Source of the DNA: Micromonospora echinospora
Lineage (GTDB): Bacteria > Actinomycetota > Actinomycetes > Mycobacteriales > Micromonosporaceae
Direction of reading: 5' to 3'
NCBI RefSeq assembly: GCF_014203425.1
Contig: NZ_JACHJC010000001.1
Location: 3,622,001 to 3,686,000 of the forward strand
Length of the DNA stretch: 64,000 nt
In this document: piece after piece, positions 3,301 through 19,175 of the stretch
Layout: the number at the start of each line of letters is the position of its first letter
Numbering within the stretch: position 1 is the stretch's first letter
The notes under the pieces: generated by a model
The model's input: the letters and a program-made list of their open reading frames with translations, nothing else
What the model was told of the DNA's origin: nothing
Databases searched by the model: none
Made by a program: the position numbers and the translations under genes

Positions 3301-3872
3301 GGCGGCTGCGCGTGGAGATCGTCTTCAATCCGGACGTCTACGGCGAAGCCCTGATCGCGGCAGTGCTCGGCGACGTCGAGCGGCTGCTGCGAGCCGGCGC
3401 CGCCGACCCCCGGCGGGCGGTGTCCGAGCTGCCCGCCTTCACCGCCGTCCCGGCCGGGACACCGGGTGACGTGCCCCGGGCCGTCCGCATCACCCGGACC
3501 GTGGGCCGGGCGAGCGCGACCGCCGCACGCCCGGCCACCGCCACCGAGCGGCAGATCGCGTCGGTCTGGTGCAACGTGCTCGGCGTACCGGAGGTGGCGG
3601 CGACTGACAGCTTCTTCGACGTCGGCGGCGGTTCGCTCGCCGTCGCCGTCGTGCAGCGGCAACTCAACCGGCTGCTCGGCACGAACCTGCGGGTCGTGGA
3701 CCTGTTCCACCACCCGACAGTCCGTACGCTCGCGGCGCACCTGGACAGCGTCCGGGCGTCGTCGCCGGCCGAGGACGCCGAGGACGAGGCGGTGGCCCGG
3801 GCCGCGCGGCGGGGCGCCGTGCGCCGTCAGCGTGTGCAGCGCCGCCCGGCCGTGGAGGACGATCAGCGGTGA
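387..3872 (+). CDS. Nonribosomal peptide synthetase, A-T-C-T
   Basis: The protein has 1161 residues with four domains. The adenylation domain (about 15-480) shows TSGSTGQPKG, FDASVADM, YGPTEAT and the GKI lysine. The first carrier domain (about 505-575) has its phosphopantetheine serine in HHGGHSI. The condensation domain (about 590-1020) has HHAVFDG near residue 714. The second carrier domain (about 1050-1120) has GGGSLAV. My hand-read specificity code is D-A-A-V-V-G-V-V-L-K, a hydrophobic-looking pocket that I cannot assign to a substrate. The A domain has no preceding C domain, so it is a possible loading module. The second carrier has no adenylation partner and must be loaded in trans or receive the chain otherwise. 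ATG start overlaps the upstream stop; the end overlaps the LanB-like gene. Confidence 0.93.
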   Translation: MNGPELPYPEVCLPDLVAAHARRRPDAPAVVQGGQTLSYAGLVGRAAALAASLRAHGIGPDDLVGVCVDRRPDLVVALLGVQAAGAGYVPLDPALPTGRLRELSTEARLRVVVGTPATAAEAFTGLTVQGVPAGTAPWQPTPATLSTTAYAMFTSGSTGQPKGAVIEHRALTEKVTSIAQFSGFDAATRCLAFASIGFDASVADMLAPLAAGSTVVLAGDAERADPARLYRVCAGQDVDVVVLPPPILPLLDPARLPGVRLVVTGGEATGPEQVGRWTAGGRRFISVYGPTEATVLVTWFEGSGDWTRPIPIGRPAANHRIHLVDDDLREVGPGEIGEVLAGGPGLGRGYLSDAARTAQRFVPDPFSGRPGQRLYRTGDLARWLPDGNLEFLGRADRQVKIRGQRIELGEVEAVLRRHPDVDLANVQVRVGPGGQELVAYVATGLDVTELRAYCARLLPPAAVPARMHTMAALPITINGKIDTERLAALDTAGSAPAPGGEAPATDTERLVAQAWAALLDVPAVGRDDDFFHHGGHSITAMRLVADLRERLGRDLAIEDVLVGRTPRGIAARADAAAGTGPATAVRGRPPAPSPAQQRLWFLDRYFPAAASAYNVAFAERLTGPLDVAALATALTAVADRQQILRWRIPDRDGVPYAVADPSTPVPLPVRELPPGTDLATHLAAGAATPFTLATDTLWRAELIRTGADEHVLAVYAHHAVFDGWSQSLFYADLATAYRAALGDGPPLPPLPATYGDYVAWRADRARRRAEADLDWWLEHLTGAPVVVQLPGGRDRPAEQTYTSATVSTRLDPAATTALTDLAAGLGATPAAAVLAAFALVLARRTGLADLVVGTPTVDRRVADFEPMVGFFIEIAPLRLRQTPGAGFAEHVRAAWEELLAALAHPEAPVERVVGGLGLGGLLDRSPLVQVLFNMYTFDEPRLDLAGLTDEPVPVPAPGSPFDLTLYGVTRDGRLRVEIVFNPDVYGEALIAAVLGDVERLLRAGAADPRRAVSELPAFTAVPAGTPGDVPRAVRITRTVGRASATAARPATATERQIASVWCNVLGVPEVAATDSFFDVGGGSLAVAVVQRQLNRLLGTNLRVVDLFHHPTVRTLAAHLDSVRASSPAEDAEDEAVARAARRGAVRRQRVQRRPAVEDDQR

Positions 3873-6184
3873 CGCATCTGGTTCCCCTCGGTGACACCGG
3901 CTGGTCGGTGTGGCGCGACGTGCTGCTGCGGAGCGCCGGGTTCCCCGCCGACGGACTGGACCGCTTCGCCGCGCCGGACTGCGCCGACGCCGCCGACCGC
4001 CACCTCGCCGGTGACCTGGACGCCTCCGCGTTCAGCGCCGCGTACGCCGACGCCACCCGGGCGTCCTCGGCGGCGGTGTGCGAGGTCGCCGCCGACCCGC
4101 TGTTCCGGGAGGCCGTCGCCTGGCAGAACCCGGAGGCGCTCGTCGCGCTGGACGGGCTGCTCCGCGACGGCCCGGACGCGCCCCGCAACGTACGCCGCCG
4201 GGGCCGGGAGAACGTCGTCGCCGGGTACTGGCAGCGCTACGTCGCCAAGTGCGAGACCATCGGCTTCTTCGGGCCGGTGTGCTGGGGAACCGTGGAGCCA
4301 GGCCCGCCCGGCGTCGTCGCCACATCCGGCCCCGGCCTGCTCCGCCGCCGCGCCGTCCAACTCGAGTACTGGGCGCTCGCCGCGTACGCAAACCGCCTGG
4401 CGGCGGATCCGGAGGTGCGGCGATGGCTGGCCCCGGCCCGGGCGCCGCACGTGCACCTGGACGGGCGGGTCGTGCACCGGCCCGCCCAGCGCCCGGCGCC
4501 GGTGTCGCTCACCGAGTCGACCGCGCTGCTGCGGTGCGACGGCATCCGCCCGGCCCGGGACATCGTCGACGACCTGGTGGCCGACCGGCAGACCGGCGTA
4601 CGCCGGGCCGAGGAGGGCTTCCTGCTGCTGGCGCACCTGGTCGAGCGGGGCCTGCTGCGCTGGGACTTCGACCTGCCACAGGGGTTCGTCGCCCAGGAGT
4701 GCCTGCGCGAGCGGATCGAGGCGATCGGCGACCCGGAGTGCCGCAAGGAGGCCCTCGCCGGGCTGGACCGGCTGGCCACCGCCCGCACCCGCGTCGCCGA
4801 CGCCGCCGGTGACCCCGCCGCGCTGGCCGGCGTGCTGTCCGCCCTGGACGCCGAGTTCACCGCGCTCACCGGGCTGCCGCCGCGCCGCCGGGCCGGGCAG
4901 AACTACGCCGGGCGGGCGCTGTGCCACGAGGAGACCGTCCGCGACGTGGAGCTGACCGTCGGCGCCGGAGTGCTCGACGCACTCGCCCCGGCGCTGGACC
5001 TGCCGTTGCGCGCGGCGCGCTGGCTCACCGCCGAACTGGCCACGGCGTACGGCGACGCGCTGCGCGACCTGTACGCCGATCTGAGCGGCGACGGGCCGGT
5101 CCGGCTCGGTGACCTGTGGTTCGTCGCCCAGGGGCCGCTGTTCGGGCCCGGTGACCGGCCCGTCGACCGGGTCGCCGGCGAGTTCGCCGCCCGCTGGGAA
5201 CGGGTGCTCGGGCTGGCCGATCTGCCGGCCGGGGCGGCGCGCCTGGACCTCGGCTCGACCGAGCTGGCGCCCCGGGTGGCCGAGCAGTTCCCGGCGACCC
5301 GTCCCGGGTGGAGCGCGGGCCGGGTGCACAGCCCCGACCTGCAACTGTTCGCCGAGTCACCGCAGGCGCTCGCCGCCGGCGAGTTCGGGGCGGTGCTCGG
5401 CGAGCTGCACGCCGCGTACGCCACGTTCAACGCCGAGCTGTTCACGCACTGCCATCCCGACCTGGACCGGCTGCGGCGCGCGTACGCGGCCGACCTCGGC
5501 ACCGGGCGGCTGCGCCCGCTCTACCCGGTCGACTTCCCCCGCGTCGGCGGACGGCTCTCGGCGTCCCTGTCCGGGCCGGACGACTACCGGCTCGCGTTCG
5601 CCGACGCGCCGGGCGCCCCGCGGGACCGGCTCGTGCCGGCGAACGCGGCGATCGTGTCCGAGGTGGACGGCGTGCTGGTGGCGACCGGGCCGGACGGCGC
5701 GCGCTGGCCGCTCGTGGAGGTGTTCTCCGACCTGATCGCGGTGCACGCCGGTGACGCGTTCAAGCTGATGACCGACCGCCCGCACAGTCCTCGGATCACT
5801 GTGGACCGGCTCGTGCTCCACCGGGAGACCTGGCGCACCACGGTCGGGGCGTCGGGTCTGACGGACGCCGCCGACCAGGCGCAGCGCTACCTCGCGGTAC
5901 GCCGCTGGCGCGCGGCGCTGGGCCTGCCGGAGCGGGTCTTCGTCCGGGTGGCCACCGAACTCAAACCCGCCTACGTGGACCTGACCAGCCCGCTCTACGC
6001 CAACCGGCTCTGCCTGCTGCTGCGCGCCGCCCGGCGGGCCGAGGGCGACGAGGTCACTGTGACGGTGTCGGAGCTGCTGCCCGCGCTCGGGCAGGCGTGG
6101 TTGCCCGACGGCGCGGGCCGCCGCTACGTCAGCGAACTGCGCCTGCACATCAGCGATTCGGCCGAGGCGGAGGTCATGGCGTGA
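3869..6184 (+). CDS. LanB-type lantibiotic dehydratase N-domain protein, first copy
   Basis: This 771-residue protein matches the Lant_dehydr_N family (glutamylation half of LanB). It has the basic stretch RNVRRRGREN followed by YWQRYVAKCETIGFFGP near residue 120, which corresponds to the RTTPFG region of LanB. In its last third are PRITVDRLVLHRETWR and YLAVRRWRAALGLPERVFV. In LanB enzymes this domain transfers glutamate from Glu-tRNA to Ser/Thr of a precursor peptide; in PEARL enzymes it adds an amino acid from aminoacyl-tRNA to a peptide. It stops where the roughly 300-residue elimination domain (Lant_dehydr_C) would begin, and no such domain or precursor peptide is visible in the window. 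It overlaps both neighbouring NRPS/PKS genes by 4 bp, so it is co-translated with the assembly line. Action on a carrier-bound Ser/Thr or amine is my inference. Confidence 0.85.
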   Translation: MTHLVPLGDTGWSVWRDVLLRSAGFPADGLDRFAAPDCADAADRHLAGDLDASAFSAAYADATRASSAAVCEVAADPLFREAVAWQNPEALVALDGLLRDGPDAPRNVRRRGRENVVAGYWQRYVAKCETIGFFGPVCWGTVEPGPPGVVATSGPGLLRRRAVQLEYWALAAYANRLAADPEVRRWLAPARAPHVHLDGRVVHRPAQRPAPVSLTESTALLRCDGIRPARDIVDDLVADRQTGVRRAEEGFLLLAHLVERGLLRWDFDLPQGFVAQECLRERIEAIGDPECRKEALAGLDRLATARTRVADAAGDPAALAGVLSALDAEFTALTGLPPRRRAGQNYAGRALCHEETVRDVELTVGAGVLDALAPALDLPLRAARWLTAELATAYGDALRDLYADLSGDGPVRLGDLWFVAQGPLFGPGDRPVDRVAGEFAARWERVLGLADLPAGAARLDLGSTELAPRVAEQFPATRPGWSAGRVHSPDLQLFAESPQALAAGEFGAVLGELHAAYATFNAELFTHCHPDLDRLRRAYAADLGTGRLRPLYPVDFPRVGGRLSASLSGPDDYRLAFADAPGAPRDRLVPANAAIVSEVDGVLVATGPDGARWPLVEVFSDLIAVHAGDAFKLMTDRPHSPRITVDRLVLHRETWRTTVGASGLTDAADQAQRYLAVRRWRAALGLPERVFVRVATELKPAYVDLTSPLYANRLCLLLRAARRAEGDEVTVTVSELLPALGQAWLPDGAGRRYVSELRLHISDSAEAEVMA

Positions 6185-9100
6185 CGAACGAGACAGTGGA
6201 GCCGATCGCGATCGTCGGGCTCAGCCTGCGCGTACCCGGGGCGTCGTCGGCGGAGGAGTTCTGGCGCAACCTGGTCGTCGGCGCCGAGTCGCTCACCCGG
6301 TTCGGCCGGGCGGAGCTGCTGGCCCAGGGCGTCGCCGAGGAGCAGCTCGACGACCCGGCGTACGTGCCGGTGGCGGCCGTGCTCGACGGGGTCGACCAGT
6401 TCGACGCGGAGCTGTTCGGGATGAGCCCGCGCGACGCGGAGCTGACCGACCCGCAGCAGCGGCTGTTCCTGGAACACGCGCACGCCGCGCTCACCGACGC
6501 GGGCTGTGACCCGGCCCGCTACGACGGCGAGATCGGCGTCTACGCGGGCGGCAACGCCGACCTGTACCAGTGGCTCAACGTCCGGCGGAACCCGCAGGCC
6601 CTCGCGGACGCGGGCGAGTTGCGGGTGTCGCTCGGCAACAAGCCCGACTACCTGGCCAGCACGGTGGCGTTCCGGCTCGGCCTGCGCGGCCCGGCCCTGA
6701 CCGTGCAGACCGCCTGCTCGTCGTCGCTCGTCGCGGTGCACCTGGCGAGCGAGGCGCTGCGCAGCGGCGAGTGCGACACGGCGCTGGCCGGTGGCGTGTG
6801 CGTGGAGCTGCCGCACGCCGTCGGGTACGTCGCCGACGAGGGGTACACCTCCGCCGACGGGCACTGCCGCCCGTTCGACGCCCGCGCCGACGGCACCGTC
6901 TACGGCAGCGGCGTCGGTGTGGTCGTGCTGAAGCGGCTGTCCGACGCGCTCGCCGACGGCGACGACATCCGGGCGCTGATCATCGGCAACGCGGTGAACA
7001 ACGACGGCTCGACGAAGGCGAGCTTCACCGCGCCCAGCGTCACCGGGCAGGTGGAGGTCGTCACCCAGGCCCTCGCGGTTGCCGACGTTCCCCCGCGCTC
7101 GGTCGGCTACGTCGAGGCGCACGGCACCGGCACGGTCCTCGGCGACTCGATCGAGATAGCGGCGCTGAGCGCGGCCTACGGGCGGCGCGCCGCCGAGCGG
7201 GGCTGGTGCGGCGTCGGCTCCACGAAGGCCAACATCGGTCACCTCAGCGCGGCCGGCGGCGTGATCGGCCTGATCAAGACCGTGCTGTCGATGCGGCACC
7301 GGCTGATCCCGCCCAGCATCAACCACGACCGTCCGCACCCGGACATCGACATCGAGGCGAGCCCGTTCTACGTCGTGTCCACGCTGACCAAGTGGGAGCC
7401 GGAGGAGCAGCGGCCGCTGCGGGCCGGGGTCAGCTCGCTCGGTCTCGGCGGCACGAACGCGCACCTGGTGCTCCAGGAGGCGCCGCCGCGCGTACCCCCG
7501 GCGCCGGACTCCGGGGGCGGTGAGCTGCTCCAGGTGTCCGCCGCGACCCCGGCGGCGCTGGCCGCGGCGTGCGCCCGGCTGGCCGAGCGGCTCACCGGCG
7601 AGCCCGAGCTGGACCTGCGGGACGTGGCGTACACGTTGCGGGACGGCCGGCCGGCCTACCGGCACCGGGCCGCGGTCGTCGCGGTGGACCGGGCCCGGGC
7701 GGCCGCGGCGCTCACCGACCCGAAGCGCCGGGCCGGCGGCGACGCCGCGACCCCGCCCCGCGTGGGTCTGCTGCTCCCGGGCCAGGGTGCGCAGCACCCC
7801 GGCATGGGCGCGCGGCTGGCCGCTACCGAGCCGGTGTTCGCCGCCGCCGTCGACGAGTGCGCCGCGATCCTCGGCTGGGACGCAGGCGACATGATCTTCG
7901 ACGCCGGACCCGGCGCCGACGAGCGGCTCGCCGAACCGGCCGTGGCGCAACCCGCGCTGTTCGCCGTCGAGTACGCCCTCGCGACGCTGTGGCGGCACTG
8001 GGGCGTCACGCCCGCCGCGATGATCGGCCACTCCGTCGGCGAGCTGGTCGCCGCGACCGTGGCCGGGGTCTTCGACCTGCCCGACGCGCTGCGGCTCGCC
8101 GCCGCCCGGGGCCGCCTGGTCCAGGCCGCGCCGCAGGGCCGCATGCTCGCCGTGCAGCGCGGCGCCGAGGAGATCGCGCCGCTGCTGCCCGACGGCGTCG
8201 CCGTGGCGGTCAGCAACGGCCCGCAGACCTGCGTGCTGGCCGGCGCGCCGGAACCGGTCACCGCCGCCGCCGACGCGCTGCGCGAACGCGGCATCGGCTG
8301 CACGCTGCTGCGGTCGCCGTACGCGATGCACGTGCCGCTGCTGGAGCCGGTGCGCGACGAGTTCGCGGCGCTCGTCGCGGCGGTGCCGCGCCGGGCGCCG
8401 GACCTGACGGTGTTCTCCGCCGCGACCGCCGCGCCGTTCACCGACGCGCAGATCACCGACCCGGCGTACTGGGCCGGGCAGCTGTGCCGGACGGTGCGGT
8501 TCGGGGACACAGTGGCGGCGCTCGCCGCTACCGGCGCCGCCGACGACTGGCTGCTACTGGAGTGCGGCCCCGGCCGGCAACTCGCCGGACTCGCCCGGCT
8601 CAGCCTGCCGCAGGGGGCCCGGGCGCCGCTGCGCACGCTGCCCGCGCCGGGGGAGCGGCTGACCGACCGGCAGACCGCGTACGAGGCGGCGGGCCGGCTG
8701 TGGACCGCAGGGGTGCCGGTGCGCCTGCCCGCCTCCGGCACGCCGCGCCGGGTGCCGCTGCCGGGTTACCCGTACCAGCGGGCCCGGTACTGGATCGACC
8801 CCGCGCCGGTGGCCGCACCCGCCGAACCGGCCACCGACCGGCGGTACGACGACGGGGTGGTCGAGGTCCCGGTCTGGCGTCAACTGCCCGACACCGCGCC
8901 CGCCGGGGCACCCGGTCCGCTGCTGCTGTTCGCCTCCGGGGAGCGGGGCACGGCGCTCGCGGACCGGCTGCGCGAGCGCGGCGTGGACGTGACAGTGGTC
9001 CGTCCCGGGCCCGCCTTCGCGGTCCGCCCGGACGGCTTCCGGCTGCGTCCGACGAACGTCGCCGACCACCGGCGGCTGCTCGACGAGTGCGCCGACGACG

Positions 9101-10536
9101 GCCGCGCCGGCCGGATCGTGCACGCGTGGGCGCTCGACGGCGACCCGGCCGGCGCCGACGCGGACGCCGTGGCGGCGGCACAGGAGCACGGGTACCTCGC
9201 GCTGCTGACGCTGCTGGAGGCGCTGCCGGCCGCCGACCTGGAACTGGACGTGGTGACCGCCGGGACGGCCGACGTGACCGGGAGCGACCTGCTGCGCCCG
9301 GAGCACGCCACAGTGGCCGGGGTGGTGCGCTCGGTGCCGCTGGAACGCCCGGGGCTGCGCTGCCACTGGGTCGACGCCGACCCGGCCGACCCGGGCGCGC
9401 ACGCGGTGGCTGACGAACTGCTCGGCGCCGAGCGGGCCGAGTCGGTCGCGCTGCGGCTGGGCGGGCGCCGCTGGACCCGCGAGTTCGCGGCGGTCCGGCC
9501 GGGTGGGCATACCGGCCCGGGGCCGGTCCTGCGCGACGGCGGACGCTACCTGATCACCGGCGGGCTGGGGCGGATCGGCGGCGCGTTCGCCGCCGAGCTG
9601 GCCCGCCGGGGCGCGCGGCTGGTGCTGCTCGGCCGCGCCACGCAGCCACCACCGGGCGTGATCGAGGCCCTGGAACGGGCCGGCGCGCAGGTCCGCCACG
9701 TCAGCGCCGACGTGACCGACGTGGACGCGCTGCGGGCGGTACGCACCGACGTCCTGCGCGACCTCGGCGGACTCGACGGAGTCATCCACGCCGCGCGGCT
9801 GCCCGACACCGGACTGTCCGCCGGGTCGCGACTGGCCGAGGCGGCGGCGGAACTGCGGCCGAAGGTCACCGGCACGCTGGCGCTGCGCGAGGTCTTCGGT
9901 GACCTGCCGCTCGACGTCGTCGTGCTCAACTCGTCGGTGACAGCGCTCGCGGGCGGCCTGGGCCGCGCCGACGACACGGCCGCCAACGCGTTCCTCGACG
10001 CGTACGCGCGCGGCCCGCACGGGTGGCGGGCACCAGTCGTGTCGCTGGCCTGGGGAGCGTGGCGGGAGGAGGGCGTCCCCGACCACGACGGGCTGTCCCC
10101 GGCGGCGGCCGTCGGCGCGGCGAACCGGGTCCTCGGTGAGGGGCGTACCGGCTCGGTGGCGGTCGGCGCGTACACGGTGGCCGCTGTCGCCGGGCACGAG
10201 CGGCGGCTCGCCTCGGCCACCGCCGCCACCGCCTCGACGGCGCCCGCCGCCGACGGCGACCTGACCGCCACAGTCGCCCGGATCTGGCGGGACGTGCTCG
10301 GCGTGGCCGAGGTCGGCCCGTATGACAACTTCTTCCGGCTCGGCGGCACCTCGCTCGTGGCCGCGCAACTGGTGCTGCGCATCCGCCAGGCGGTCGGGGC
10401 CCGGCTGTCCATGCGGGTGCTGTTCGACGCGCCGACCGTGTCGGCGATGGCGGCCCGGATCGAGTCGCTGCGCGCCGCCCCACCCGCCGCCGCGTCCGCG
10501 GAGGCGCCCATCCCGCGCCTGCGGAGACCGGTATGA
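6181..10536 (+). CDS. Type I modular polyketide synthase, KS-AT-KR-ACP
   Basis: The protein has 1451 residues. The ketosynthase (about 8-430) has the active cysteine in TACSSSL and both histidines (EAHGTGT, NIGHLSAAGG). The acyltransferase (about 525-830) has GQGAQHPGMG and GHSVGE; absence of Gln before GE favours malonyl over methylmalonyl, but the later motif reads YAMH, which is neither classic form. The ketoreductase core (about 1119-1300) has an intact TGGLGRIG nucleotide loop and the serine of LNSSVTA. The position of the catalytic tyrosine in GRADDTAAN is Asp, so reduction is probably lost. The ACP (about 1358-1425) carries LGGTSL. I chose GTG at 6181, which overlaps the LanB stop and follows a GGAGG; KS homology starts right after it. 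There is no DH, ER or MT domain. Confidence 0.94.
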   Translation: MTNETVEPIAIVGLSLRVPGASSAEEFWRNLVVGAESLTRFGRAELLAQGVAEEQLDDPAYVPVAAVLDGVDQFDAELFGMSPRDAELTDPQQRLFLEHAHAALTDAGCDPARYDGEIGVYAGGNADLYQWLNVRRNPQALADAGELRVSLGNKPDYLASTVAFRLGLRGPALTVQTACSSSLVAVHLASEALRSGECDTALAGGVCVELPHAVGYVADEGYTSADGHCRPFDARADGTVYGSGVGVVVLKRLSDALADGDDIRALIIGNAVNNDGSTKASFTAPSVTGQVEVVTQALAVADVPPRSVGYVEAHGTGTVLGDSIEIAALSAAYGRRAAERGWCGVGSTKANIGHLSAAGGVIGLIKTVLSMRHRLIPPSINHDRPHPDIDIEASPFYVVSTLTKWEPEEQRPLRAGVSSLGLGGTNAHLVLQEAPPRVPPAPDSGGGELLQVSAATPAALAAACARLAERLTGEPELDLRDVAYTLRDGRPAYRHRAAVVAVDRARAAAALTDPKRRAGGDAATPPRVGLLLPGQGAQHPGMGARLAATEPVFAAAVDECAAILGWDAGDMIFDAGPGADERLAEPAVAQPALFAVEYALATLWRHWGVTPAAMIGHSVGELVAATVAGVFDLPDALRLAAARGRLVQAAPQGRMLAVQRGAEEIAPLLPDGVAVAVSNGPQTCVLAGAPEPVTAAADALRERGIGCTLLRSPYAMHVPLLEPVRDEFAALVAAVPRRAPDLTVFSAATAAPFTDAQITDPAYWAGQLCRTVRFGDTVAALAATGAADDWLLLECGPGRQLAGLARLSLPQGARAPLRTLPAPGERLTDRQTAYEAAGRLWTAGVPVRLPASGTPRRVPLPGYPYQRARYWIDPAPVAAPAEPATDRRYDDGVVEVPVWRQLPDTAPAGAPGPLLLFASGERGTALADRLRERGVDVTVVRPGPAFAVRPDGFRLRPTNVADHRRLLDECADDGRAGRIVHAWALDGDPAGADADAVAAAQEHGYLALLTLLEALPAADLELDVVTAGTADVTGSDLLRPEHATVAGVVRSVPLERPGLRCHWVDADPADPGAHAVADELLGAERAESVALRLGGRRWTREFAAVRPGGHTGPGPVLRDGGRYLITGGLGRIGGAFAAELARRGARLVLLGRATQPPPGVIEALERAGAQVRHVSADVTDVDALRAVRTDVLRDLGGLDGVIHAARLPDTGLSAGSRLAEAAAELRPKVTGTLALREVFGDLPLDVVVLNSSVTALAGGLGRADDTAANAFLDAYARGPHGWRAPVVSLAWGAWREEGVPDHDGLSPAAAVGAANRVLGEGRTGSVAVGAYTVAAVAGHERRLASATAATASTAPAADGDLTATVARIWRDVLGVAEVGPYDNFFRLGGTSLVAAQLVLRIRQAVGARLSMRVLFDAPTVSAMAARIESLRAAPPAAASAEAPIPRLRRPV

Positions 10537-13500
10537 CGGAGTCGCGGCAGGACGTCACGCCGGTGGAGGACGTCTACACGGTCCCGGCCTCCTACGCGCA
10601 GGAGCGGGTCTGGTTCACTGCCCAGCTCAGCCCCGGGCAGCCGTTGTTCACCATGACCGACGCGGTCACCCTGCCGCCGGGCGCCGGCCCGGAGCAGGCG
10701 CTCGCCGCGCTGCGGGCGGTCACCGACCGGCACGAGTCCATGCGCACCACACTGCGCCTCGACGACGGCCGGCTCTACCAGGACATCCACCCCACGGTGC
10801 CGGTCGAGCTGCCGGTCACCGACCTGTCCGGGCTGCCCGAGCCGGAGCGCAATGATGCCCGTGCCCGGATCGTCGCCGAGTACGCAGGCCTCGACCTGCC
10901 GATGGACACCGCGCCGCTGTGGCGGGCCCGGCTGCTGCGGCTCGGCCCGGACACCTGGTGGCTGCTGTTCGCCGGGCATCACGTCGTCCTCGACGGCACG
11001 TCCCTGCTCATCCTGCGCGCCGAGCTGACCGAGCTGTGCGCCGCCGCCGTCGCGGGCCGCGAGCCGGACCTGCCCGACCTGCCCATCCAGTACGCCGACT
11101 ACGCCGCCTGGGACCGCGACCGCCTCGACGGCCCTCGCTGGGACGAGCTGCGCGAGTACTGGCGGGAGGCGTTGACCGGCCTGCCGGCAGTGCACGCGCT
11201 GACCACCGACCGGCCGCGCCCGCCGACGCTCTCGTTCGACGGCGCAGACGTCCGCCGTACGCTGCCGGCTGACGTTACGCGGGCGCTGCCCGAGCTGGCC
11301 CAGCAGTCCGCCGCCACCCCGTTCATGGTGCAGCTGGCCGCCTACGTCGCGCTGCTGCACCGGCTGTCCGGAAGCGACGACGTGGTGGTCGGCATGCCGG
11401 TGACCGGCCGCGACCGCGCCGAGCTGGAACCGCTGCTCGGCATGTTCATGAACATGCTGGTGCTGCGGGTCGACGTGTCGGGCGACCCGCCGTTCCTGAC
11501 CCTGGTCCGCCGGGTACGCAGGGTTGTGCTCGACGCCTGGGACCACCAGGACATGCCGTTCCAGCGGCTGGTCGAGGAGCTGGCGGTACGGCGCGACCCG
11601 GGCGTGCCGCCGCTGTACCAGCTCACGTTCCACCACCTGCCGACCGGCCGGGGCGAGGCGTTCGGCGGCGCCATGGACGACCTGTCGCTGGAGATCGCCG
11701 GGGACGAGCTGCGGCTGGAGTACCGCACGGCGTTGTTCGAGCGCGCCGGCATGGAGGCGTTCGCCGACCGTTACCTGCTGCTGTTCGCCGCCGCCGTGGC
11801 GGCGCCCCGCACCCGGGTGAGCGCGCTGCCGGTCATGTCGGACGCCGAGCGCGCCAAGGTGGTCACCGGCTGGAACGCCACCGACGGCCCGGTACGCCGG
11901 ACCACGCTGGCGGAGCTCTTCGACGATCAGGTCCGGCGCGCGCCGGACGCGGTGGCGCTCGTCGACGGCGACACCCTGATGACGTACGCCGAGCTGTCCG
12001 CGGCCGCCGAGCAGGTGGCGCGGCGGCTGGTCGCGTACGGCGTGGGACCGGAGTCGGTCGTCGCGATCCACGAGCCCCGCTCCAGCCGCCTGGTCGCCGG
12101 GCTGCTCGGCATCCACCGGGCCGGCGCGGCGTACCTGCCGCTGGACCCGGACCACCCGGCGCAACGGCTGGCCTTCATGCTGGCCGACGCGGGCGCCGGG
12201 GTGCTGCTCGCCGACGAGATGCCGGACGGGCTGACGGCGCCGGGCGCGGTGCTGCCGCTGACCGCGCCGGACCAGCCGCGCACCGGCGAGCGCGTCGCCG
12301 CCGGGCCGGGGAACGCGGCGTACGTGATCTACACGTCCGGTTCCACCGGGCGGCCGAAGGGCGTGGTGAACGAGCACGCCGCGATCGTCAACCGGCTCGA
12401 CTGGATGCAGGACGCGTTCGCGCTCGGCCCGGACGACGCGGTGCTGCACAAGACGCCGATCGGCTTCGACGTGTCGGTGTGGGAGGTGTTCTGGCCGCTG
12501 ATCGTGGGCGCACGGCTGGTCCTCGCCGCGCCGGGCGGGCACCGCGACCCGGCGTACCTGCGGGAGCTGATCGAGCGGGAGCGGATCACCACTGTCCACT
12601 TCGTCCCGTCGATGCTCGACGCGTTCCTGTCCACCGCCGACCCCGCCGGGCCGGCCCGCTGCGGGTCGCTGCGGCGGATCGTGTGCAGCGGCGAGGAGCT
12701 GCCGCCGGACCTGGCCCGCCGCGCCGTGACGGCGTTCCCGTCGGCCGCGCTGCACAACCTCTACGGCCCCACCGAGGCCGCGATCGACGTCACCGCCTGG
12801 GCGGCCACGCCCGCCGCGCTCGCCGGGGTGACCCGGGTGCCGATCGGCGGGCCGATCCGCAACGTGCGCACCTACGTGCTCGACGAGGCGATGCGGCCGG
12901 CGCCGGTAGGCGTGGCCGGGCAGCTCCACCTCGGCGGCGTGCAGGTGGCCCGTGGCTACCTGAACCGGCCTGCGCTCACCGCCTGCGCGTTCGTCCCCGA
13001 CCCGTTCGGGGCGCCCGGCGGGCGGCTGTACGCCACCGGTGACCTGGCCCGCTGGCATGCCGACGGCACGCTGGAGTTCCTCGGCCGCATGGACGACCAG
13101 GTGAAACTGCGGGGCCTGCGGATCGAACCGGGGGAGATCGCCGCGGTGCTGCGCGAGCAGCCGGGCGTCGGCTCCGCCGCAGTCGTCGTCCGGGGCGCCA
13201 CGCCCGCCGAGCAGCGCCTCGTGGCGTACCTGACGGGCGAGGCCCCGGACCCGGCCGCGCTGCGCGCGGCGCTGAAGCGGCGGCTGCCGGAGTACATGGT
13301 GCCGTCGGCGTTCGTGCGGCTGGACGCGCTGCCGCTGTCCGCCAACGGCAAGCTCGACACCGCCGCGCTGCCCGCCCCGGTGTCCGGCGGCACCGCGGTG
13401 GAGCGCCGGACGCCGGTCACCCCGGTCGAGCAGGCGGTCGCCGCCGCCTGGCGCGACGTACTCGGCGTCACCGACGTCGGCCTCGACGACGACTTCTTCG

Positions 13501-15836
13501 AGCTGGGCGGGCACTCGCTGCTGGCGATCCGGATGTTGGCCATGCTGCGCGCTGTGTACGGGCAGGTCGACGTCGGCGTGATGGACGTGTTCGCCCACCC
13601 GACGGTGGAAGGGCTGGCCGCGCTGATCGACGGCCCGGCCGACCGGGAACGCCCGCTGCTGTACGAGCTGACCCGGCCGGTCCCGCCGGGGCAGCGGGTG
13701 CGCTCCTACGTGTGCGTGCCCTACGGCGGCGGCCTGGCCAGCATCTACCAGCCGCTCGCCGACGCGCTGCCGCCCGGGCACACGCTGTTCTCCGTGGCGG
13801 TCCCCGGCCACGACGTCGGCGTCGACGACACCGAGCTGCCGTTCGACGAGCTCGTCGAGCGGTGTGTGGCCGAGATCCAGGAGCGCGTGGACGGCCCGCT
13901 GGTCCTGTACGGCCACTGCGTCGGCGGCGCGCTGCTGACCGGCATCGCCCGGCGGCTGCACGAGCGGGGCCGCCCGATCGAGGCGATCTACGCCGGGGGC
14001 GTGTTCCCGACGGCGCGGCCGGACAACATGCTCGGCCGGCTCGTCGACTGGGCCGACTCCCGGGGCGCGGACCGGCGCTACGAGACGTTCCTGCGCTCGA
14101 TCGGCGCGGAGCTGGCCGACCTCGACCAGGCGCAGGTCGACCGGTTCGTCCACCACGTACGGCGGGAGGCCGCCGAGGCGCAGGAACGGTTCACCGGGTG
14201 GCTGGACGCCGAGCCGGTTCGGGTGCCCACGCCGGTGATCTCGGTCGTCGGCACCCACGACGTGCTCACCGAGTACTACGAGGAGCGGTACCGCGAGTGG
14301 AGCTTCCTCGGCGAGTCCACCGCGCTCGTGGTTCTGGACCAGGCCGGGCACTACTTCGTCAAGCAGCGGGCCGCGGCGCTCGCCGAGGTGCTCACCCGGA
14401 CTCACCCCCGGCTGGCCGAGCCCGCCGCGCCGCGCCGGCTCGCCGGTGACGGCTGGGAACTCGCCGCGACGAGCACCGACCCGGTTGCCGCCGAGGCCGC
14501 CGTGCAGCCGGGGGTACGCCGGTTCCTGGCGCTCACCGCCAGCCAGCTGATCTCGTCCACCGGCTCGGCGTTGACCCAGTGGGCGGTGCCGGTCTGGGTC
14601 TACCTGGAGACCGGGTCGATGCTGTGGTTCGGCCTGTCCGGGGTGATCGCCTACCTTCCGGCGCTGCTGACGCTGCCGGTCGCGGGCGCGGTCGCGGACC
14701 GGTTCGACAGGCGCCGGGTGCTGCTCGCCGCGTGCGCGGTAGCGGTGACCGCGGAGGCGCTTCTCGCAGTGCTGCTGTGGACCGACCGGATGGGACTGGC
14801 AGCCGTCTACACGCTCGTCTGTGTGCTCGGCGCGGCGTCGGTGTTCCAACGCATCACCTACCTGGCCGCGATCCCGCAGGTGGTGCCGAAACGCTATCTG
14901 GGCCACGCCAACGGCATCGCCCAACTCGCGGTCGGGCTCAGCTCGCTCGCCGTGCCGCTGCTGGCGGCGGGCCTGCTCGCGGCGATCGGCCTGGCCGGCG
15001 TACTGGTGATCGACATCGTGAGCTACGTGGCGGCGATCGGTGTGCTGGTGGCGGTGCGCTTCCCCGACCTGCTCGGCCGCCGCCGCAAGGAGCCGTTCCT
15101 GGCCGAGCTGGTCGGCGGCGCGCGGATGGCGTGGGCGGAACCGGGGTTCCGGGCCATGCTGGGCTTCTTCTCGCTCTACAACCTGTGCCTGGCCAGCCTG
15201 CTGCTGGTGCCGCCGATGGTGCTCGCGTTCGGCACGATGGGCCAGGTCGGCACCGTCGCGTTCGCCGAGGCGCTGGGCGCGGTCCTCGGTGGACTCGCCA
15301 TCGCGATCTGGGGCGGCCCGACCCGCCGCCGGATGCCCGCGCTGATCGCCATCGCGTTCGGGGTGGCGATCAGCCTGGTGCTCAGCGGCGTACGCCCGAG
15401 CCTCCTGCTGGTGGCGCTCGGCAGCTTCGGCGTCGGCCTGGGCCTGGGCCTGCACAACGGCATCTACCTGTCGATCATCCAGGTGAAGGTGCCGCAGCGG
15501 TTCCACGGCCGGGTACTGGCGATCATCCAGACGCTGACCTGGGCGACGCTGCCGCTGGGCTTCGCCGTGCTGGTGCCGCTGAGCGGGTCGCTGCTGGAGC
15601 CGATGTTCGCGCCGGGCGGCGCCCTGGCCGACAGCGTCGGCGCGCTGATCGGCACCGGCCCCGGCCGAGGGCTCGGGTTCGCGTTCGTGGTGTCCGGGCT
15701 GGCACTGGTTGTGGTGTCGCTCGGCGCCTACGGCGTACGCCGGCTGCGCCTGTTCGACACCGAGACCCCCGACGCCCCGGCGGACGCCACCGAGTGGCTA
15801 CCGCACCTGCGCCGGCACCGGGTCGACGATCTGTAG
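10533..15836 (+). CDS. NRPS C-A(Ser)-T-TE fused to an MFS exporter
   Basis: The chain of 1767 residues has six recognisable parts. The C domain has HHVVLDG near residue 148. The A domain (about 450-945) has YTSGSTGRPKG and YGPTEAA; its hand-read code D-V-W-H-V-S-L-I-D-K differs little from the known serine code (EntF DVWHFSLVDK), so serine is a strong prediction. The carrier has LGGHSLL. The thioesterase (about 1050-1290) has GHCVGG, i.e. Cys instead of Ser as nucleophile, with candidate Asp (THDVLT) and His (AGHYFV). From about residue 1325 to 1740 there is a complete MFS_3-type transporter with some 11-12 membrane segments and the loop DRFDRRRV. Release and export may thus be coupled on one polypeptide. 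ATG start overlaps the PKS stop. The end overlaps the opposite-strand LanB-like gene by 39 bp. Confidence 0.95.
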   Translation: MTESRQDVTPVEDVYTVPASYAQERVWFTAQLSPGQPLFTMTDAVTLPPGAGPEQALAALRAVTDRHESMRTTLRLDDGRLYQDIHPTVPVELPVTDLSGLPEPERNDARARIVAEYAGLDLPMDTAPLWRARLLRLGPDTWWLLFAGHHVVLDGTSLLILRAELTELCAAAVAGREPDLPDLPIQYADYAAWDRDRLDGPRWDELREYWREALTGLPAVHALTTDRPRPPTLSFDGADVRRTLPADVTRALPELAQQSAATPFMVQLAAYVALLHRLSGSDDVVVGMPVTGRDRAELEPLLGMFMNMLVLRVDVSGDPPFLTLVRRVRRVVLDAWDHQDMPFQRLVEELAVRRDPGVPPLYQLTFHHLPTGRGEAFGGAMDDLSLEIAGDELRLEYRTALFERAGMEAFADRYLLLFAAAVAAPRTRVSALPVMSDAERAKVVTGWNATDGPVRRTTLAELFDDQVRRAPDAVALVDGDTLMTYAELSAAAEQVARRLVAYGVGPESVVAIHEPRSSRLVAGLLGIHRAGAAYLPLDPDHPAQRLAFMLADAGAGVLLADEMPDGLTAPGAVLPLTAPDQPRTGERVAAGPGNAAYVIYTSGSTGRPKGVVNEHAAIVNRLDWMQDAFALGPDDAVLHKTPIGFDVSVWEVFWPLIVGARLVLAAPGGHRDPAYLRELIERERITTVHFVPSMLDAFLSTADPAGPARCGSLRRIVCSGEELPPDLARRAVTAFPSAALHNLYGPTEAAIDVTAWAATPAALAGVTRVPIGGPIRNVRTYVLDEAMRPAPVGVAGQLHLGGVQVARGYLNRPALTACAFVPDPFGAPGGRLYATGDLARWHADGTLEFLGRMDDQVKLRGLRIEPGEIAAVLREQPGVGSAAVVVRGATPAEQRLVAYLTGEAPDPAALRAALKRRLPEYMVPSAFVRLDALPLSANGKLDTAALPAPVSGGTAVERRTPVTPVEQAVAAAWRDVLGVTDVGLDDDFFELGGHSLLAIRMLAMLRAVYGQVDVGVMDVFAHPTVEGLAALIDGPADRERPLLYELTRPVPPGQRVRSYVCVPYGGGLASIYQPLADALPPGHTLFSVAVPGHDVGVDDTELPFDELVERCVAEIQERVDGPLVLYGHCVGGALLTGIARRLHERGRPIEAIYAGGVFPTARPDNMLGRLVDWADSRGADRRYETFLRSIGAELADLDQAQVDRFVHHVRREAAEAQERFTGWLDAEPVRVPTPVISVVGTHDVLTEYYEERYREWSFLGESTALVVLDQAGHYFVKQRAAALAEVLTRTHPRLAEPAAPRRLAGDGWELAATSTDPVAAEAAVQPGVRRFLALTASQLISSTGSALTQWAVPVWVYLETGSMLWFGLSGVIAYLPALLTLPVAGAVADRFDRRRVLLAACAVAVTAEALLAVLLWTDRMGLAAVYTLVCVLGAASVFQRITYLAAIPQVVPKRYLGHANGIAQLAVGLSSLAVPLLAAGLLAAIGLAGVLVIDIVSYVAAIGVLVAVRFPDLLGRRRKEPFLAELVGGARMAWAEPGFRAMLGFFSLYNLCLASLLLVPPMVLAFGTMGQVGTVAFAEALGAVLGGLAIAIWGGPTRRRMPALIAIAFGVAISLVLSGVRPSLLLVALGSFGVGLGLGLHNGIYLSIIQVKVPQRFHGRVLAIIQTLTWATLPLGFAVLVPLSGSLLEPMFAPGGALADSVGALIGTGPGRGLGFAFVVSGLALVVVSLGAYGVRRLRLFDTETPDAPADATEWLPHLRRHRVDDL

Positions 15837-18119
15837 CCGCAGCTCCGAGGCGTACGCCCGGCCGGCCCCGTCGGTCAGCCAGGCGTCGTCCGGGCCGGGC
15901 AGCAACTCGGTGACCGTCAGGCCGACGCCGTCGCCGCCCTTGGCGTGCGCGCCCCGCAACAGCGTGCACAGCAGTCGGGTGTAGACGCCGCTGGTCAGGT
16001 CGACGTAGCTGGGCTTGAGTTCGGTGTCGACCCGGACGAAGACCTGCTCGGGCAGGCCCATCGCCAGCCGCCAGCGGCGTACCGCGAGGTAGCGTTCCCG
16101 CTCGCCCTTGACCGTGTGCAGGCCGGTCTCGCCGACCGTGGTGCGCCACGTCTCGCGTACCAGCACCAGGCCGTCGACTGTGACGCGCGGCGTGCGCCCG
16201 GCGTTGCCGGCCAGCTTCCACGTGTCGAACACCTGGTAGTCGAACAGCGGCGCGAACACCTCCAGCAGCGGCCACCGCCGGCCGTCGTCCGCGTGCGCGG
16301 TTAGCGTGCCGTCGGCGTCCGGCCGCACGGTCAGGGCGGTGATCGGCACGAGGCGGTCCGGGTCGGCGCCGGGAGCGTCGACGAAGCCGATCTGGGCGTC
16401 GGCGGGCCCGTGCAGCCACTCCGCGATCCGGGCCGTGTGCCGGGGCCAGTCCACCGGCGCCAGCAGCCGTACCCGGCCGTCGGGCAGGTCGGCGCGCATG
16501 CCGTCGCGCAGCCGCTGCGGGTCCGGGTGCCCGTACGCGAAGAAGTGCGTGTCGAACGCGGCCAGGGCGACGTGCAGCTCGCCGAGCACGACCGTGAAGT
16601 CCCCGCGCAGCAGCGCCGTCTCGTCAGTGGCGCACACGTGCACGTCCGGGCTGTGGATCCGGGCGGCGGCCCAGCCGGGCGCGGTGGCGGGGAAGGCGGC
16701 GGCGACCCGCTCGGTCAGCTCCGCGGCGTCGAACCGCAGCTCCCGGGCGTCGCCGTCGGCGTCGGCCAGGCCGAGCACCGTCGCCCACCGGCCGAGGAAG
16801 TCGGCGGTGACTGCGGCACCGGGCGGGTCCGCCCCGAACACCATCGCCTGCGCCAGGAACCACAGGTCGGCCAGGGCAACGTCCACGGTGGCCGACTCCG
16901 CCGCCAGGTCGCGGTACAGGGCGGTCAGCGCGTCGGCGTACGCCGCACCGATCGCCGAGGTCAGCCACCGCGCCGACAGCAGCAGCGGCGCCAGCGGGGC
17001 GAGCCGTTCCAGCAGCGCGTCACCGAAGCCGACGTCCAGGTCGCGGACCGTCTCCAGGTGGCAGAGCGTGCGACCGGCGTACACCTCGCCGGGCTGCTGC
17101 CGCGCGGCCCGGCCGGTCAGCTCCACGAACCGCCGGTCCAACGCGGACATCGCCTCGGCTAGTGCGTCCGGGCCGTCGGCGGCGGCCACCGCGTCGCGCA
17201 GCGCGCCCACTGTGGACAGGTCGCCGAGCACCCGTTCCCGGGCCGTGTCGTCGCCGATCGCGGCCAACTGTTCGCGCAGCACGTCCTCGGCGGTGAGGTC
17301 GACCGGCAGGTCGAAGCCGATCCGCAGCACGCCGCGCCCGGCGAGGTCGTCCAACTGGGCGTGCACGTCGGCGGCGCGGCGGAAGCCGCTCGCCGGGTCC
17401 GCGAGCAGCGCGGCGACCAGATCGGCGACGCGCGGCCCCCGCTGCGCCAGCGCGAGCAGCGCCGCAGTCGCTGCGGTCACCGTCTGCGGCGGGTGGTGCG
17501 GGTGCCGCAGCACCCGCTCGCGCACCGTCAGGTGCGGGGCCAGCCGCACCGGCAGCCAGTCCCGCACGCCCGGCGCACGGGCGAACGACTCGCCGAGCGC
17601 GTCCAGGCCCCACCGTTCCAGGAACACCTTGCGGGTACGCGTCAGAGCCGCGCCGGGGCGTACGGTCGCGACCGGACCCGGGCCGCCCAGCTCGGTCCAG
17701 CAGATGGGGCCGAAGAAGCCCACTGTGTCGTTCTTCAGGCAGTACCGCTGCCAGTACTTCGCGATCACCTCCTCCCGGTGGCGGCGGCGCAGATTGCGCG
17801 GGGCGTGCGGGCCGTCGCGCCGGATCGCGTCGACAGCGAGCAGGACCGCCGGGTTCTGCCAGATCAGCGCCGTGCGGAACGCGTCGTCGCAGGCGATGTC
17901 GTAGACCGCCTGCCCGAGTTCGGTAGCGGCGGCGTCGAACGCGGCCCCGAAGTCCGCCGCGTCGCCCTCCCCGCGCAGATGCCTGTCGGCCGCCGCCGCG
18001 AGCGCGGGCGCGGCGAACCGCCGCATCCCGGCGGCCGGAAAACCGGCCGACCGGAGCAACGCGGAACGCCATACGTGCCAAGGGGTTCCGGGCAGGGACG
18101 TGAGATGCTCTCGGGGCAT
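15798..18119 (-). CDS. LanB-type lantibiotic dehydratase N-domain protein, second copy
   Basis: This 773-residue protein is a clear paralogue of the LanB-type protein at 3869-6184. Both begin with a WxVWRxxLLRSAGFP block, both have YWQRY followed by a (T/V)xGFFGP block near residue 120, and both end with YVDLTS, a (V/L)TV(S/T)ELLP block and YxSELRL. It too lacks the elimination domain. Unlike the first copy it is transcribed alone on the opposite strand, converging on the NRPS-MFS gene. Its ATG sits six bases after TACCAT on the minus strand, the spacing of a leaderless actinobacterial promoter, so its expression may be timed separately. Function in this pathway is unknown: glutamylation, aminoacyl-tRNA-dependent ligation, or a scaffold role are all possible. 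Confidence 0.85.
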   Translation of the reverse strand: MPREHLTSLPGTPWHVWRSALLRSAGFPAAGMRRFAAPALAAAADRHLRGEGDAADFGAAFDAAATELGQAVYDIACDDAFRTALIWQNPAVLLAVDAIRRDGPHAPRNLRRRHREEVIAKYWQRYCLKNDTVGFFGPICWTELGGPGPVATVRPGAALTRTRKVFLERWGLDALGESFARAPGVRDWLPVRLAPHLTVRERVLRHPHHPPQTVTAATAALLALAQRGPRVADLVAALLADPASGFRRAADVHAQLDDLAGRGVLRIGFDLPVDLTAEDVLREQLAAIGDDTARERVLGDLSTVGALRDAVAAADGPDALAEAMSALDRRFVELTGRAARQQPGEVYAGRTLCHLETVRDLDVGFGDALLERLAPLAPLLLSARWLTSAIGAAYADALTALYRDLAAESATVDVALADLWFLAQAMVFGADPPGAAVTADFLGRWATVLGLADADGDARELRFDAAELTERVAAAFPATAPGWAAARIHSPDVHVCATDETALLRGDFTVVLGELHVALAAFDTHFFAYGHPDPQRLRDGMRADLPDGRVRLLAPVDWPRHTARIAEWLHGPADAQIGFVDAPGADPDRLVPITALTVRPDADGTLTAHADDGRRWPLLEVFAPLFDYQVFDTWKLAGNAGRTPRVTVDGLVLVRETWRTTVGETGLHTVKGERERYLAVRRWRLAMGLPEQVFVRVDTELKPSYVDLTSGVYTRLLCTLLRGAHAKGGDGVGLTVTELLPGPDDAWLTDGAGRAYASELRLQIVDPVPAQVR

Positions 18120-18164: not shown

Positions 18165-19175
18165 ATGAGTTTCGGGCTGGTGTCCTTCGGCGAGGCGCTC
18201 GGCGAACCGGCGCCGGTGGCGGACGTGGTGGGGCAGTACACCGACGACGTGCGGCGGGTCCTCGGCTACGGCTACCGGCGGGTGCACCGCAGCGCGCCGG
18301 ACGTCGGCCTCACCGACCTCGCCGAAGATGCCGCCCGCCGGGCCCTCGACGCCGCCGCGCTGCCCGCCGAGCGGGTGGACCTGCTGGTGCTGGCCGTCAC
18401 CGACCTCACCGAACACCTCTACTGGGACGCCGCCGCCGAGTTGGCGCACCGGCTCGGCGTGGTCGGCGCCGAGGCGGTGCTGCTCACCCAGGCGTGCACC
18501 ACGGGCGTGCTCAGCCTCGACACCGTCGCCGGCAAGTTCGCCACCCACCCCGGGTACGACCACGCGCTCGTGGTGGCCGCGAACCGGACCTGTGAGGCGT
18601 ACTGGAACCGGATGGACACGCAGCCGATGGTGTTCTCCGACGGCGCGGTCGCCACAGTGGCCCGGCGCGGGCATCCCCGGCTGCGCTGGCAGGCCACCGA
18701 GGCCGCCACCGACGGCCGCTACGCCGGGTTCTACCGGCTCGACACCGGTGGCGCGGCGGCGCCGTTCGGCCCCGGCGCCGAGCCGCCGGCCGCCCGCGAC
18801 GTGTGGCACGTGATGGAGTTCTTCGACTACGACGCCGAGCAGTTCGAGCAGTACGCCCGGCACCTGGACGAGCGGGCCGTGCGGGTCACCGAGCGGGCCT
18901 GCGAGCGGGCCGGCGTCAAGGTCGCCGACCTGGCGCGGCTGATCCTGGTCGCCGACAACGAACGCGCCATGACGTCGCTCGCGCAGGCGCACGGGGTGCC
19001 GCCGGAGCGCACGAACCGGGAGCTGGCGGCCGAGTACGGGCACCTCGGCGCGGCGGACCAGATGTTCGGGCTGAGCCGTCTGCTCGCCGCCGGTGAGCTG
19101 GCCGACGGCGACCGGATCGCGTTGATCTCGCTGGGCCGGGGCACGCACTGGGCCTGTACCATCATCGAGGTATGA
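18165..19175 (+). CDS. KAS III (FabH-like) enzyme with altered catalytic triad
   Basis: This 336-residue protein has the FabH fold signature with the nucleophile cysteine in LLTQACTTG. Aligned by eye to E. coli FabH, the position of the catalytic His (PHQANLR) reads LVADNER, and that of the catalytic Asn (HGNTSAAS) reads YGHLGAAD, so His and Asn are replaced by Val and His. This argues against ordinary decarboxylative condensation and for acyl transfer, as seen for other KAS III-like enzymes in secondary metabolism. The next gene is an ACP overlapping by 4 bp, a likely partner. I chose ATG 18165; an in-frame ATG at 18126 would leave only 6 bp to the divergent gene. The ribosome-binding site is weak. 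Confidence 0.85.
   Translation: MSFGLVSFGEALGEPAPVADVVGQYTDDVRRVLGYGYRRVHRSAPDVGLTDLAEDAARRALDAAALPAERVDLLVLAVTDLTEHLYWDAAAELAHRLGVVGAEAVLLTQACTTGVLSLDTVAGKFATHPGYDHALVVAANRTCEAYWNRMDTQPMVFSDGAVATVARRGHPRLRWQATEAATDGRYAGFYRLDTGGAAAPFGPGAEPPAARDVWHVMEFFDYDAEQFEQYARHLDERAVRVTERACERAGVKVADLARLILVADNERAMTSLAQAHGVPPERTNRELAAEYGHLGAADQMFGLSRLLAAGELADGDRIALISLGRGTHWACTIIEV

What the first reader, a model, noticed from the sequence alone, without database searches (positions are those of the whole stretch)
3869..18119. Two LanB N-domain proteins inside an NRPS-PKS cluster without precursor peptide or elimination domain
Two paralogous Lant_dehydr_N proteins (771 and 773 residues) belong to a cluster whose core is NRPS and PKS; the first is translationally coupled to assembly-line genes on both sides. 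LanB enzymes glutamylate Ser/Thr using Glu-tRNA; PEARLs ligate amino acids from tRNA. Neither use is established, to my knowledge, for carrier-bound NRPS intermediates. The terminal NRPS module is predicted to load serine, a natural glutamylation target. The hypothesis is a tRNA-dependent modification step on thioester-bound intermediates: O-glutamylation leading to dehydroalanine, O-acylation, or aminoacyl addition.
Basis: partly seen in the sequence, partly recalled or inferred. Interest (0 to 1): 0.9.

Follow-up and report, generated by a model that had tools for sequence, protein, structure and literature searches.

The report
Paired tRNA-dependent ligases on NRPS-PKS line
Two enzymes that databases call lantibiotic dehydratases sit inside a Micromonospora gene cluster for a peptide-polyketide product, and their sequences say they most likely stitch on extra amino acids taken from tRNA; one such case was published in 2024, but this branch lacks the step that explains where that published enzyme acts.

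Summary
LanB1 (3869-6184 +) and LanB2 (15798-18119 -) are PF04738-only proteins in an NRPS-PKS cluster, with no elimination domain nearby and no room for a separate precursor gene. LanB1 sits in an eight-gene chain joined by seven 4-nt overlaps. I recovered SnaE; the window pair falls in its clade (100/99; 31-38% identity over two aligned blocks). Both window proteins carry the ATP-pocket residues that separate PEARLs from dehydratases (kept in 93 of 93 aligned rows; absent from the genome's own split LanB). So amide ligation with ATP and aminoacyl-tRNA is far likelier than O-glutamylation to dehydroalanine. The new part: SnaE acts on a carboxylate exposed by a ureido-forming C domain (EHHxxHDG). 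That motif is in none of 57 related loci as held, nor does its DNA pattern occur in the own genome. The partners are instead a conserved set of A, KS, A-C and PKS genes, often with two LanBs. Small clusters elsewhere pair the same clade with a free carrier protein. Where these ligases act is open. New variant of a known kind.

The parts
1..390 (+). C-terminal end of a KS-only protein (whole gene is L010:16738-18390); its second catalytic His is replaced by Asn (KGNLGNLDAAAG)
387..3872 (+). NRPS A-T-C-T; C-domain motif AHHAVFDG (not the ureido signature EHHxxHDG); A code read by hand as DAAVVGVVLK, no known match claimed
3869..6184 (+). LanB1, PEARL-like (SnaE-clade) aminoacyl-tRNA/ATP amide ligase candidate; residues R21, D490, E512, H514, R652, F691, E756, R758
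6181..10536 (+). PKS KS-AT-KR-T (start set at the GTG of the 4-nt overlap; the longest ORF starts at 6097)
10533..15836 (+). NRPS C-A(Ser by code)-T-TE fused to an MFS transporter; C motif GHHVVLDG
15798..18119 (-). LanB2, second PEARL-like protein of a separate lineage; same ATP-pocket residues; converges on the NRPS gene with 39 bp overlap
18165..19175 (+). KASIII-like protein, divergent from LanB2 across a 45-bp gap
19172..19411 (+). free acyl carrier protein candidate (79 aa, weak PF00550)
19408..20310 (+). 2-oxoacid dehydrogenase E1 component
20307..22463 (+). fused transketolase-type E1 plus lipoyl and acyltransferase (E2) domains (start assumed at the overlap); blastn matches to the ortholog region L112 (G242) end about here (22458)

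Best explanation
LanB1 and LanB2 are PEARL-like amide ligases of the SnaE clade. Each would phosphorylate a free carboxylate of an NRPS-PKS intermediate with ATP, couple it to the amine of an aminoacyl-tRNA, and let the tRNA be hydrolysed off, so that each adds one amino acid that the thioester assembly line cannot add itself. Two lineages in one cluster suggest two additions. Shown by sequence: fold, catalytic-pocket residues, clade, operon, absence of precursor and elimination domain. Inferred: the activity, from TglB/BhaB/SnaE biochemistry. Open: which amino acids, which carboxylate, and whether the acceptor is carrier-bound or released. I lean to an early, carrier-bound acceptor, because in the relatives LanBs lie between the A/KS genes and the A-T-C-T gene (in the window LanB1 follows the A-T-C-T gene), and because the last module is fused to TE and an exporter.
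Against: No activity was measured. The correspondence to TglB numbering rests on spacing (D +22 E; ExH; ExR) and on LanB-like proteins from a pearlin-like cluster, since no experimentally characterised PEARL other than SnaE was in hand. The acceptor carboxylate is not identified: the only proven source in this clade, a ureido C domain, is missing. Early action is argued from gene order and one domain fusion only. Carrier association is not absolute: L066 (41% identical) stands next to a GNAT gene with no carrier or adenylation gene recognised in 22 kb, and L082 has its nearest annotated AMP-binding and carrier genes about 13-14 kb away.
Confidence: 0.75

Rival explanations
1. Carrier-independent C-terminal extension: the TE releases a peptide ending in Ser, and the LanBs then add one or two amino acids from tRNA to its free C-terminal carboxylate, as canonical PEARLs do on peptides.
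For: Canonical PEARL chemistry extends C-termini; terminal module codes for Ser followed by TE; in many relatives the LanB is itself fused to a thioesterase (49 of the 120 listed hits carry PF00975; 49 are 1,000 aa or longer).
Against: The TE is fused to an MFS exporter in both own clusters, which suggests export right after release; LanB hits lie with the early A/KS/A-C genes in most loci.
Confidence: 0.22
2. SnaE-type extension after chain reversal: C1 is an unrecognised ureido-forming domain and the LanBs extend the reversed carboxylate.
For: Same clade as SnaE; the window protein starts A-T-C, as SnaA does by the paper's description.
Against: C1 reads xHH[A/I]VFDG in 51 of 51 loci where it was found, never EHHxxHDG; the DNA pattern for EHHxxHDG has 0 matches in the own genome but finds Stackebrandtia; C1 domains form their own clade, and SnaA's position was not resolved.
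Confidence: 0.12
3. O-glutamylation of a Ser (carrier-bound or released), leading to dehydroalanine or an ester: the reader's first option.
For: Ser module present; shared tRNA-end residues R21, R652, F691.
Against: No PF14028 in the cluster; both genomic copies belong to the other LanBs; PEARL-type residues where the split LanB has F/Q/F/A.
Confidence: 0.05
4. The LanBs are non-catalytic docking proteins that kept the RRE-like winged helix.
For: RRE-like domain present in the model (residues about 178-268).
Against: Catalytic-pocket residues invariant across 93 aligned rows.
Confidence: 0.03

Closest known systems
SnaE, threopeptin (sna) cluster, Stackebrandtia nassauensis (PMC11212132)
   Same: PF04738-type protein in an NRPS-PKS cluster without precursor peptide; same clade; same ATP-pocket residues; 38/35% identity with LanB1 and 34/31% with LanB2 over the two aligned blocks
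   Different: One LanB, not two; sna has a ureido C domain EHHLVHDG at SnaA residue 744, the window has none; the separate A-T, the KS-only protein, DUF6002 and the MDH-fold protein are not in sna as the paper describes it
PEARLs of pearlin pathways (TglB, AmmB, BhaB; L080 as a cluster of that look read here)
   Same: ATP-pocket D, H, ExR residues; no elimination domain
   Different: They act on ribosomal scaffold peptides; the window cluster has no room for a separate precursor gene
Split LanB / class I lanthipeptide dehydratases (TbtB, NisB, MibB; own L013)
   Same: Overall fold, tRNA-end residues
   Different: Those have an elimination domain or partner and other residues at the ATP pocket

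Membership tests
SnaE-type NRPS/PKS-associated PEARL-like ligase | falls in one clade with SnaE apart from pearlin PEARLs and split LanB | tested here: met
   100/99 support, 39 of 47 rows; long branches among the outgroups noted by the tool
SnaE-type NRPS/PKS-associated PEARL-like ligase | encoded within an NRPS-PKS cluster with no precursor peptide gene | tested here: met
SnaE-type NRPS/PKS-associated PEARL-like ligase | partner ureido-forming C domain with EHHxxHDG | tested here: not met
   so it is not filed as a threopeptin-type system
PEARL (peptide aminoacyl-tRNA ligase) | PF04738 domain without PF14028 | tested here: met
PEARL (peptide aminoacyl-tRNA ligase) | ATP-pocket Asp and Glu-x-Arg (TglB D542, E801, R803) | tested here: met
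   roles from PMC11117183 passages; mapping by spacing and alignment
PEARL (peptide aminoacyl-tRNA ligase) | scaffold peptide encoded in the cluster | tested here: not met
   largest gap from the MDH-fold gene to 22463 is 45 bp (coordinates; junctions); works like a PEARL but is not a pearlin-pathway member
PEARL (peptide aminoacyl-tRNA ligase) | ATP- and aminoacyl-tRNA-dependent amide formation | not testable with these tools
   -
Class I lanthipeptide dehydratase / split LanB | elimination domain (PF14028) fused or adjacent | tested here: not met
   two copies in the genome, both with other LanBs
Class I lanthipeptide dehydratase / split LanB | glutamyl-tRNA-dependent Ser/Thr glutamylation | not testable with these tools
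   -

The most novel reading that the evidence does not exclude
A carrier protein, not a ribosomal peptide, is the scaffold. A special amino acid, made by a CysK-like PLP enzyme or a mutase, is loaded by an A domain onto a T domain or free ACP, and one to three PEARL-like ligases extend a spare carboxylate with amino acids from tRNA, away from the direction of the assembly line and without ureido chain reversal. The window cluster, its Micromonospora and Streptosporangium relatives, and the small plasmid clusters L081/L113 and L083 would then be versions of one tRNA-to-carrier-protein system.
Probability: 0.3. Interest if true: 0.78.

Novelty: new variant of a known kind. Interest (0 to 1): 0.52.

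Why it matters
Known PEARLs extend ribosomal peptides, or, in the one NRPS case found in print, a carboxylate freed by ureido formation. A large actinomycete branch without either points to another way in which protein-synthesis tRNAs feed non-ribosomal products. The small clusters (adenylation protein, PLP enzyme, carrier protein, two LanBs) are small enough to rebuild in vitro, so the question of what the about 2,000 misnamed 'lantibiotic dehydratases' of NRPS/PKS clusters act on becomes directly testable.

Tried and rejected
Single-sequence searches of the PDB with LanB1 and LanB2 found nothing credible; a 16-sequence profile found TbtB (E 2.3e-10).

I considered that the TE fused to LanB in the second own cluster is that cluster's only release enzyme; rejected, because the last NRPS there also ends in TE-MFS. 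A script for A-domain codes failed on most domains and misplaced position 278 and often 299/301; only hand-read codes are used. The C-domain tree left SnaA's domain unresolved. A PADLOC scan of both LanBs was empty. A scan of viral contigs with an L081 LanB found no relative. Whether any LanB place lies near a ureido-motif place was not computed, since both lists are cut. A claim of three tandem LanBs in L039 was dropped: only two copies of the motif were recognised there, against three in L023.
Full report
WHAT IS THERE. The window lies at C1:3622001-3686000 of a 7.1-Mb single-contig genome; by the closest named relatives (five Micromonospora loci with LanB1 83-89% identical) it is a Micromonospora. 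LanB1 (771 aa) and LanB2 (773 aa) match PF04738 only. The cluster extends left of the window. In order it reads: methyltransferase; A-FkbM methyltransferase-T; an MDH/LDH-fold protein; DUF6002; A-T; KS alone; [window] A-T-C-T; LanB1; KS-AT-KR-T; C-A(Ser)-T-TE-MFS; LanB2 on the other strand; then, divergent from LanB2 by 45 bp, KASIII, ACP and 2-oxoacid dehydrogenase subunits. Seven successive 4-nt ATGA/GTGA overlaps join the eight genes from the MDH-fold gene to the C-A-T-TE-MFS gene, LanB1 among them. Blastn matches to the related genome G242 end on the right near 22458.

NO RiPP PARTS. Between the MDH-fold gene and 22463 no gap exceeds 45 bp, so a separate precursor gene does not fit. PF14028 occurs at two places in the genome, each with one of the two other LanBs, at about 3.21 Mb (adjacent gene) and 0.31 Mb (same open frame). 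The genome therefore has two LanBs with an elimination domain and four without, all four of the latter in NRPS-PKS clusters (one of the four fused to a thioesterase).

WHAT THE PROTEINS ARE. PMC11212132 (parts 1-3 of 6 of its text read; the rest is references) describes SnaE, which adds Thr to an NRPS-PKS product, and states that around two thousand NRPS/PKS clusters encode a 'lantibiotic dehydratase', some fused to TE or T domains. I found the sna locus in genome G348 (contig 6,841,557 bp), with EHHLVHDG at residue 744 of the NRPS exactly as printed. SnaE aligns to LanB1 in two blocks of 38% and 35% identity, and to LanB2 in two blocks of 34% and 31%. PMC11117183 and PMC11962472 (passages seen) give the PEARL-only ATP-pocket residues as TglB Asp542 and Arg803, beside the Glu801 shared with TbtB; split LanBs have Tyr and Leu at the first two. 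The matching window residues are D490, E756 and R758, with E512 and H514 as the Glu-x-His pair; this mapping rests on spacing and alignment. Of the LanB ORF hits in 57 loci, 13 fragments or short hits were dropped; 93 rows remained: 88 from loci, the four own proteins and SnaE. D490, E512 and H514 are kept in 93 of 93, and E756 and R758 in 91, the other 2 being gapped there; position 691 is F in 62 and Y in 31. The own split LanB has F, Q, F, E, A at D490, E512, H514, E756, R758; these are not the Tyr and Leu of the papers, but they lack the PEARL set too. Seven LanB-like proteins of a pearlin-like cluster on a Kitasatospora plasmid (L080) have D 7/7, H 7/7, ExR 7/7 and E512 5/7; that cluster was judged by its TldD-type proteases and two oxidoreductases, and I know of no assay of its proteins.

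WHAT DIFFERS FROM SnaE. In SnaA the C domain makes a urea and leaves a free carboxylate. In 57 loci fetched with LanB1, the C domain matching that of the A-T-C-T protein was found with its motif in 51 and reads xHH[A/I]VFDG in all 51; EHHxxHDG occurs in none of the 57 as held, nor in the own two clusters. A further NRPS cluster with a LanB (L115) has four C motifs, none of the ureido kind. A DNA pattern for EHHxxHDG gave 0 matches in the own genome and matches in 145 of 354 genomes of the family, S. nassauensis among them; the reversed-pattern control matched in about 21 genomes by my count; which matches lie in C domains was not checked. The C1 domains form their own clade (100/100, 7 rows). 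So the known source of the acceptor carboxylate is missing here, unless C1 is a ureido domain without the signature.

CONSERVED SURROUNDINGS. Most loci give hits in the order A, KS, LanB(s), A, C, KS, AT, KR; in the window and its four closest complete relatives LanB1 follows the A-C gene instead. In 41 of 57 loci LanB hits fall in two or more ORFs (some are fragments); counting full-length rows only, 33 of 54 loci have two or more, and L023 (Streptosporangium) has three in tandem. Of the 120 listed homologs, 49 carry a thioesterase domain. The MDH-fold protein is in 13 and DUF6002 in 12 of 57 loci. Among loci of that type the separate KS could be read in 9 (own plus 8; five others were not parsed) and has Asn for the second His in all 9, while the parsed KS of the TE-LanB type mostly keep it. 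DUF6002 has an invariant TTK and PTS[GA]NKG in 13 of 13 rows and a weak match to cysteine synthase (E 0.0017, far below cut-off), which suggests a PLP enzyme.

SMALL CLUSTERS. L081 (Streptomyces fungicidicus plasmid) and L113 (Streptomyces sp. CL7 plasmid) hold LanB, adenylation protein, PLP enzyme (PALP by Pfam in L081), free ACP, LanB, with MbtH and phosphopantetheinyl transferase beside them and no multidomain NRPS or PKS annotated in the stretch shown. L083 holds glutamate mutase, LanB, ACP, AMP-binding protein, ATP-grasp protein and a C-domain protein. The LanBs of L081 and L083 belong to the same branch (L113 was not in the tree). They suggest that a carrier protein can be the whole stage for a LanB of this clade. 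Against that, L066 has a LanB beside a GNAT gene and no carrier or adenylation gene was recognised in its 22 kb, and in L082 the nearest annotated ones are about 13-14 kb off.

HOW IT MOST LIKELY WORKS. ATP phosphorylates a carboxylate, aminoacyl-tRNA attacks, tRNA leaves: inferred from PEARL biochemistry and the residues. Two enzymes, two additions: inference. Site: open. Gene order in the relatives and the TE-MFS fusion in both own clusters favour an early, carrier-bound acceptor; canonical PEARL chemistry favours the released C-terminal Ser.

LITERATURE. Judged from the listings, searches (30 of 1,829 papers listed), 24, 35, 73 and 74 of the held library show only the 2024 paper and its preprint for NRPS-linked PEARLs; subscription journals are mostly not held, so other work may exist. 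PMC12945691 (2026 review) has no hit for NRPS or SnaE, PMC11962472 none either, and PMC12550832 none for NRPS, polyketide or SnaE.

VERDICT. Real and well conserved, with the class of system already published; the missing ureido domain, the paired or tripled ligases and the carrier-only relatives make it a new variant with an open, testable question.

Noticed in passing
own genome C1:3773494-3778907 (L011/L012): A second NRPS-PKS cluster with a TE-LanB fusion directly followed by a second LanB, embedded between A-T-KS and A-T-C-T, ending in C-A-T-TE-MFS; similar loci were found in many Micromonospora species.
   Followed up: partly
L010:13056-14411 (left of the window): DUF6002 carries an invariant Lys and PTS(G/A)NKG loop typical of CysK-type PLP enzymes; no paper in the held library mentions DUF6002. 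It travels with an MDH/LDH-fold protein and an A-T didomain.
   Followed up: partly
L010:16738-18390: A KS-only protein whose second catalytic His is Asn, probably unable to do decarboxylative condensation, between an A-T and an A-T-C-T protein.
   Followed up: partly
window 18165-22463: KASIII, ACP and 2-oxoacid dehydrogenase subunits next to LanB2, like (from recall) the two-carbon-unit loading sets of naphthyridinomycin-type pathways.
   Followed up: no
L080 (NZ_CP108290.1 752078-780995): A Kitasatospora plasmid cluster with seven LanB-like proteins, TldD-type proteases, an NAD(P)H-dependent and an FAD-binding oxidoreductase: looks like a pearlin cluster.
   Followed up: partly
L081, L113 (Streptomyces plasmids): Minimal cluster: two LanBs, adenylation protein, PLP enzyme, free ACP, MbtH, phosphopantetheinyl transferase.
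   Followed up: partly
L066:9929-13465: A LanB of this family next to an Eis-like GNAT gene between housekeeping genes, with no NRPS, carrier or adenylation gene recognised.
   Followed up: no
L023:9989-16850: A Streptosporangium locus with three full LanB genes in tandem; each copy groups inside the Streptosporangiaceae branch of the tree, which looks like lineage-specific duplication.
   Followed up: partly
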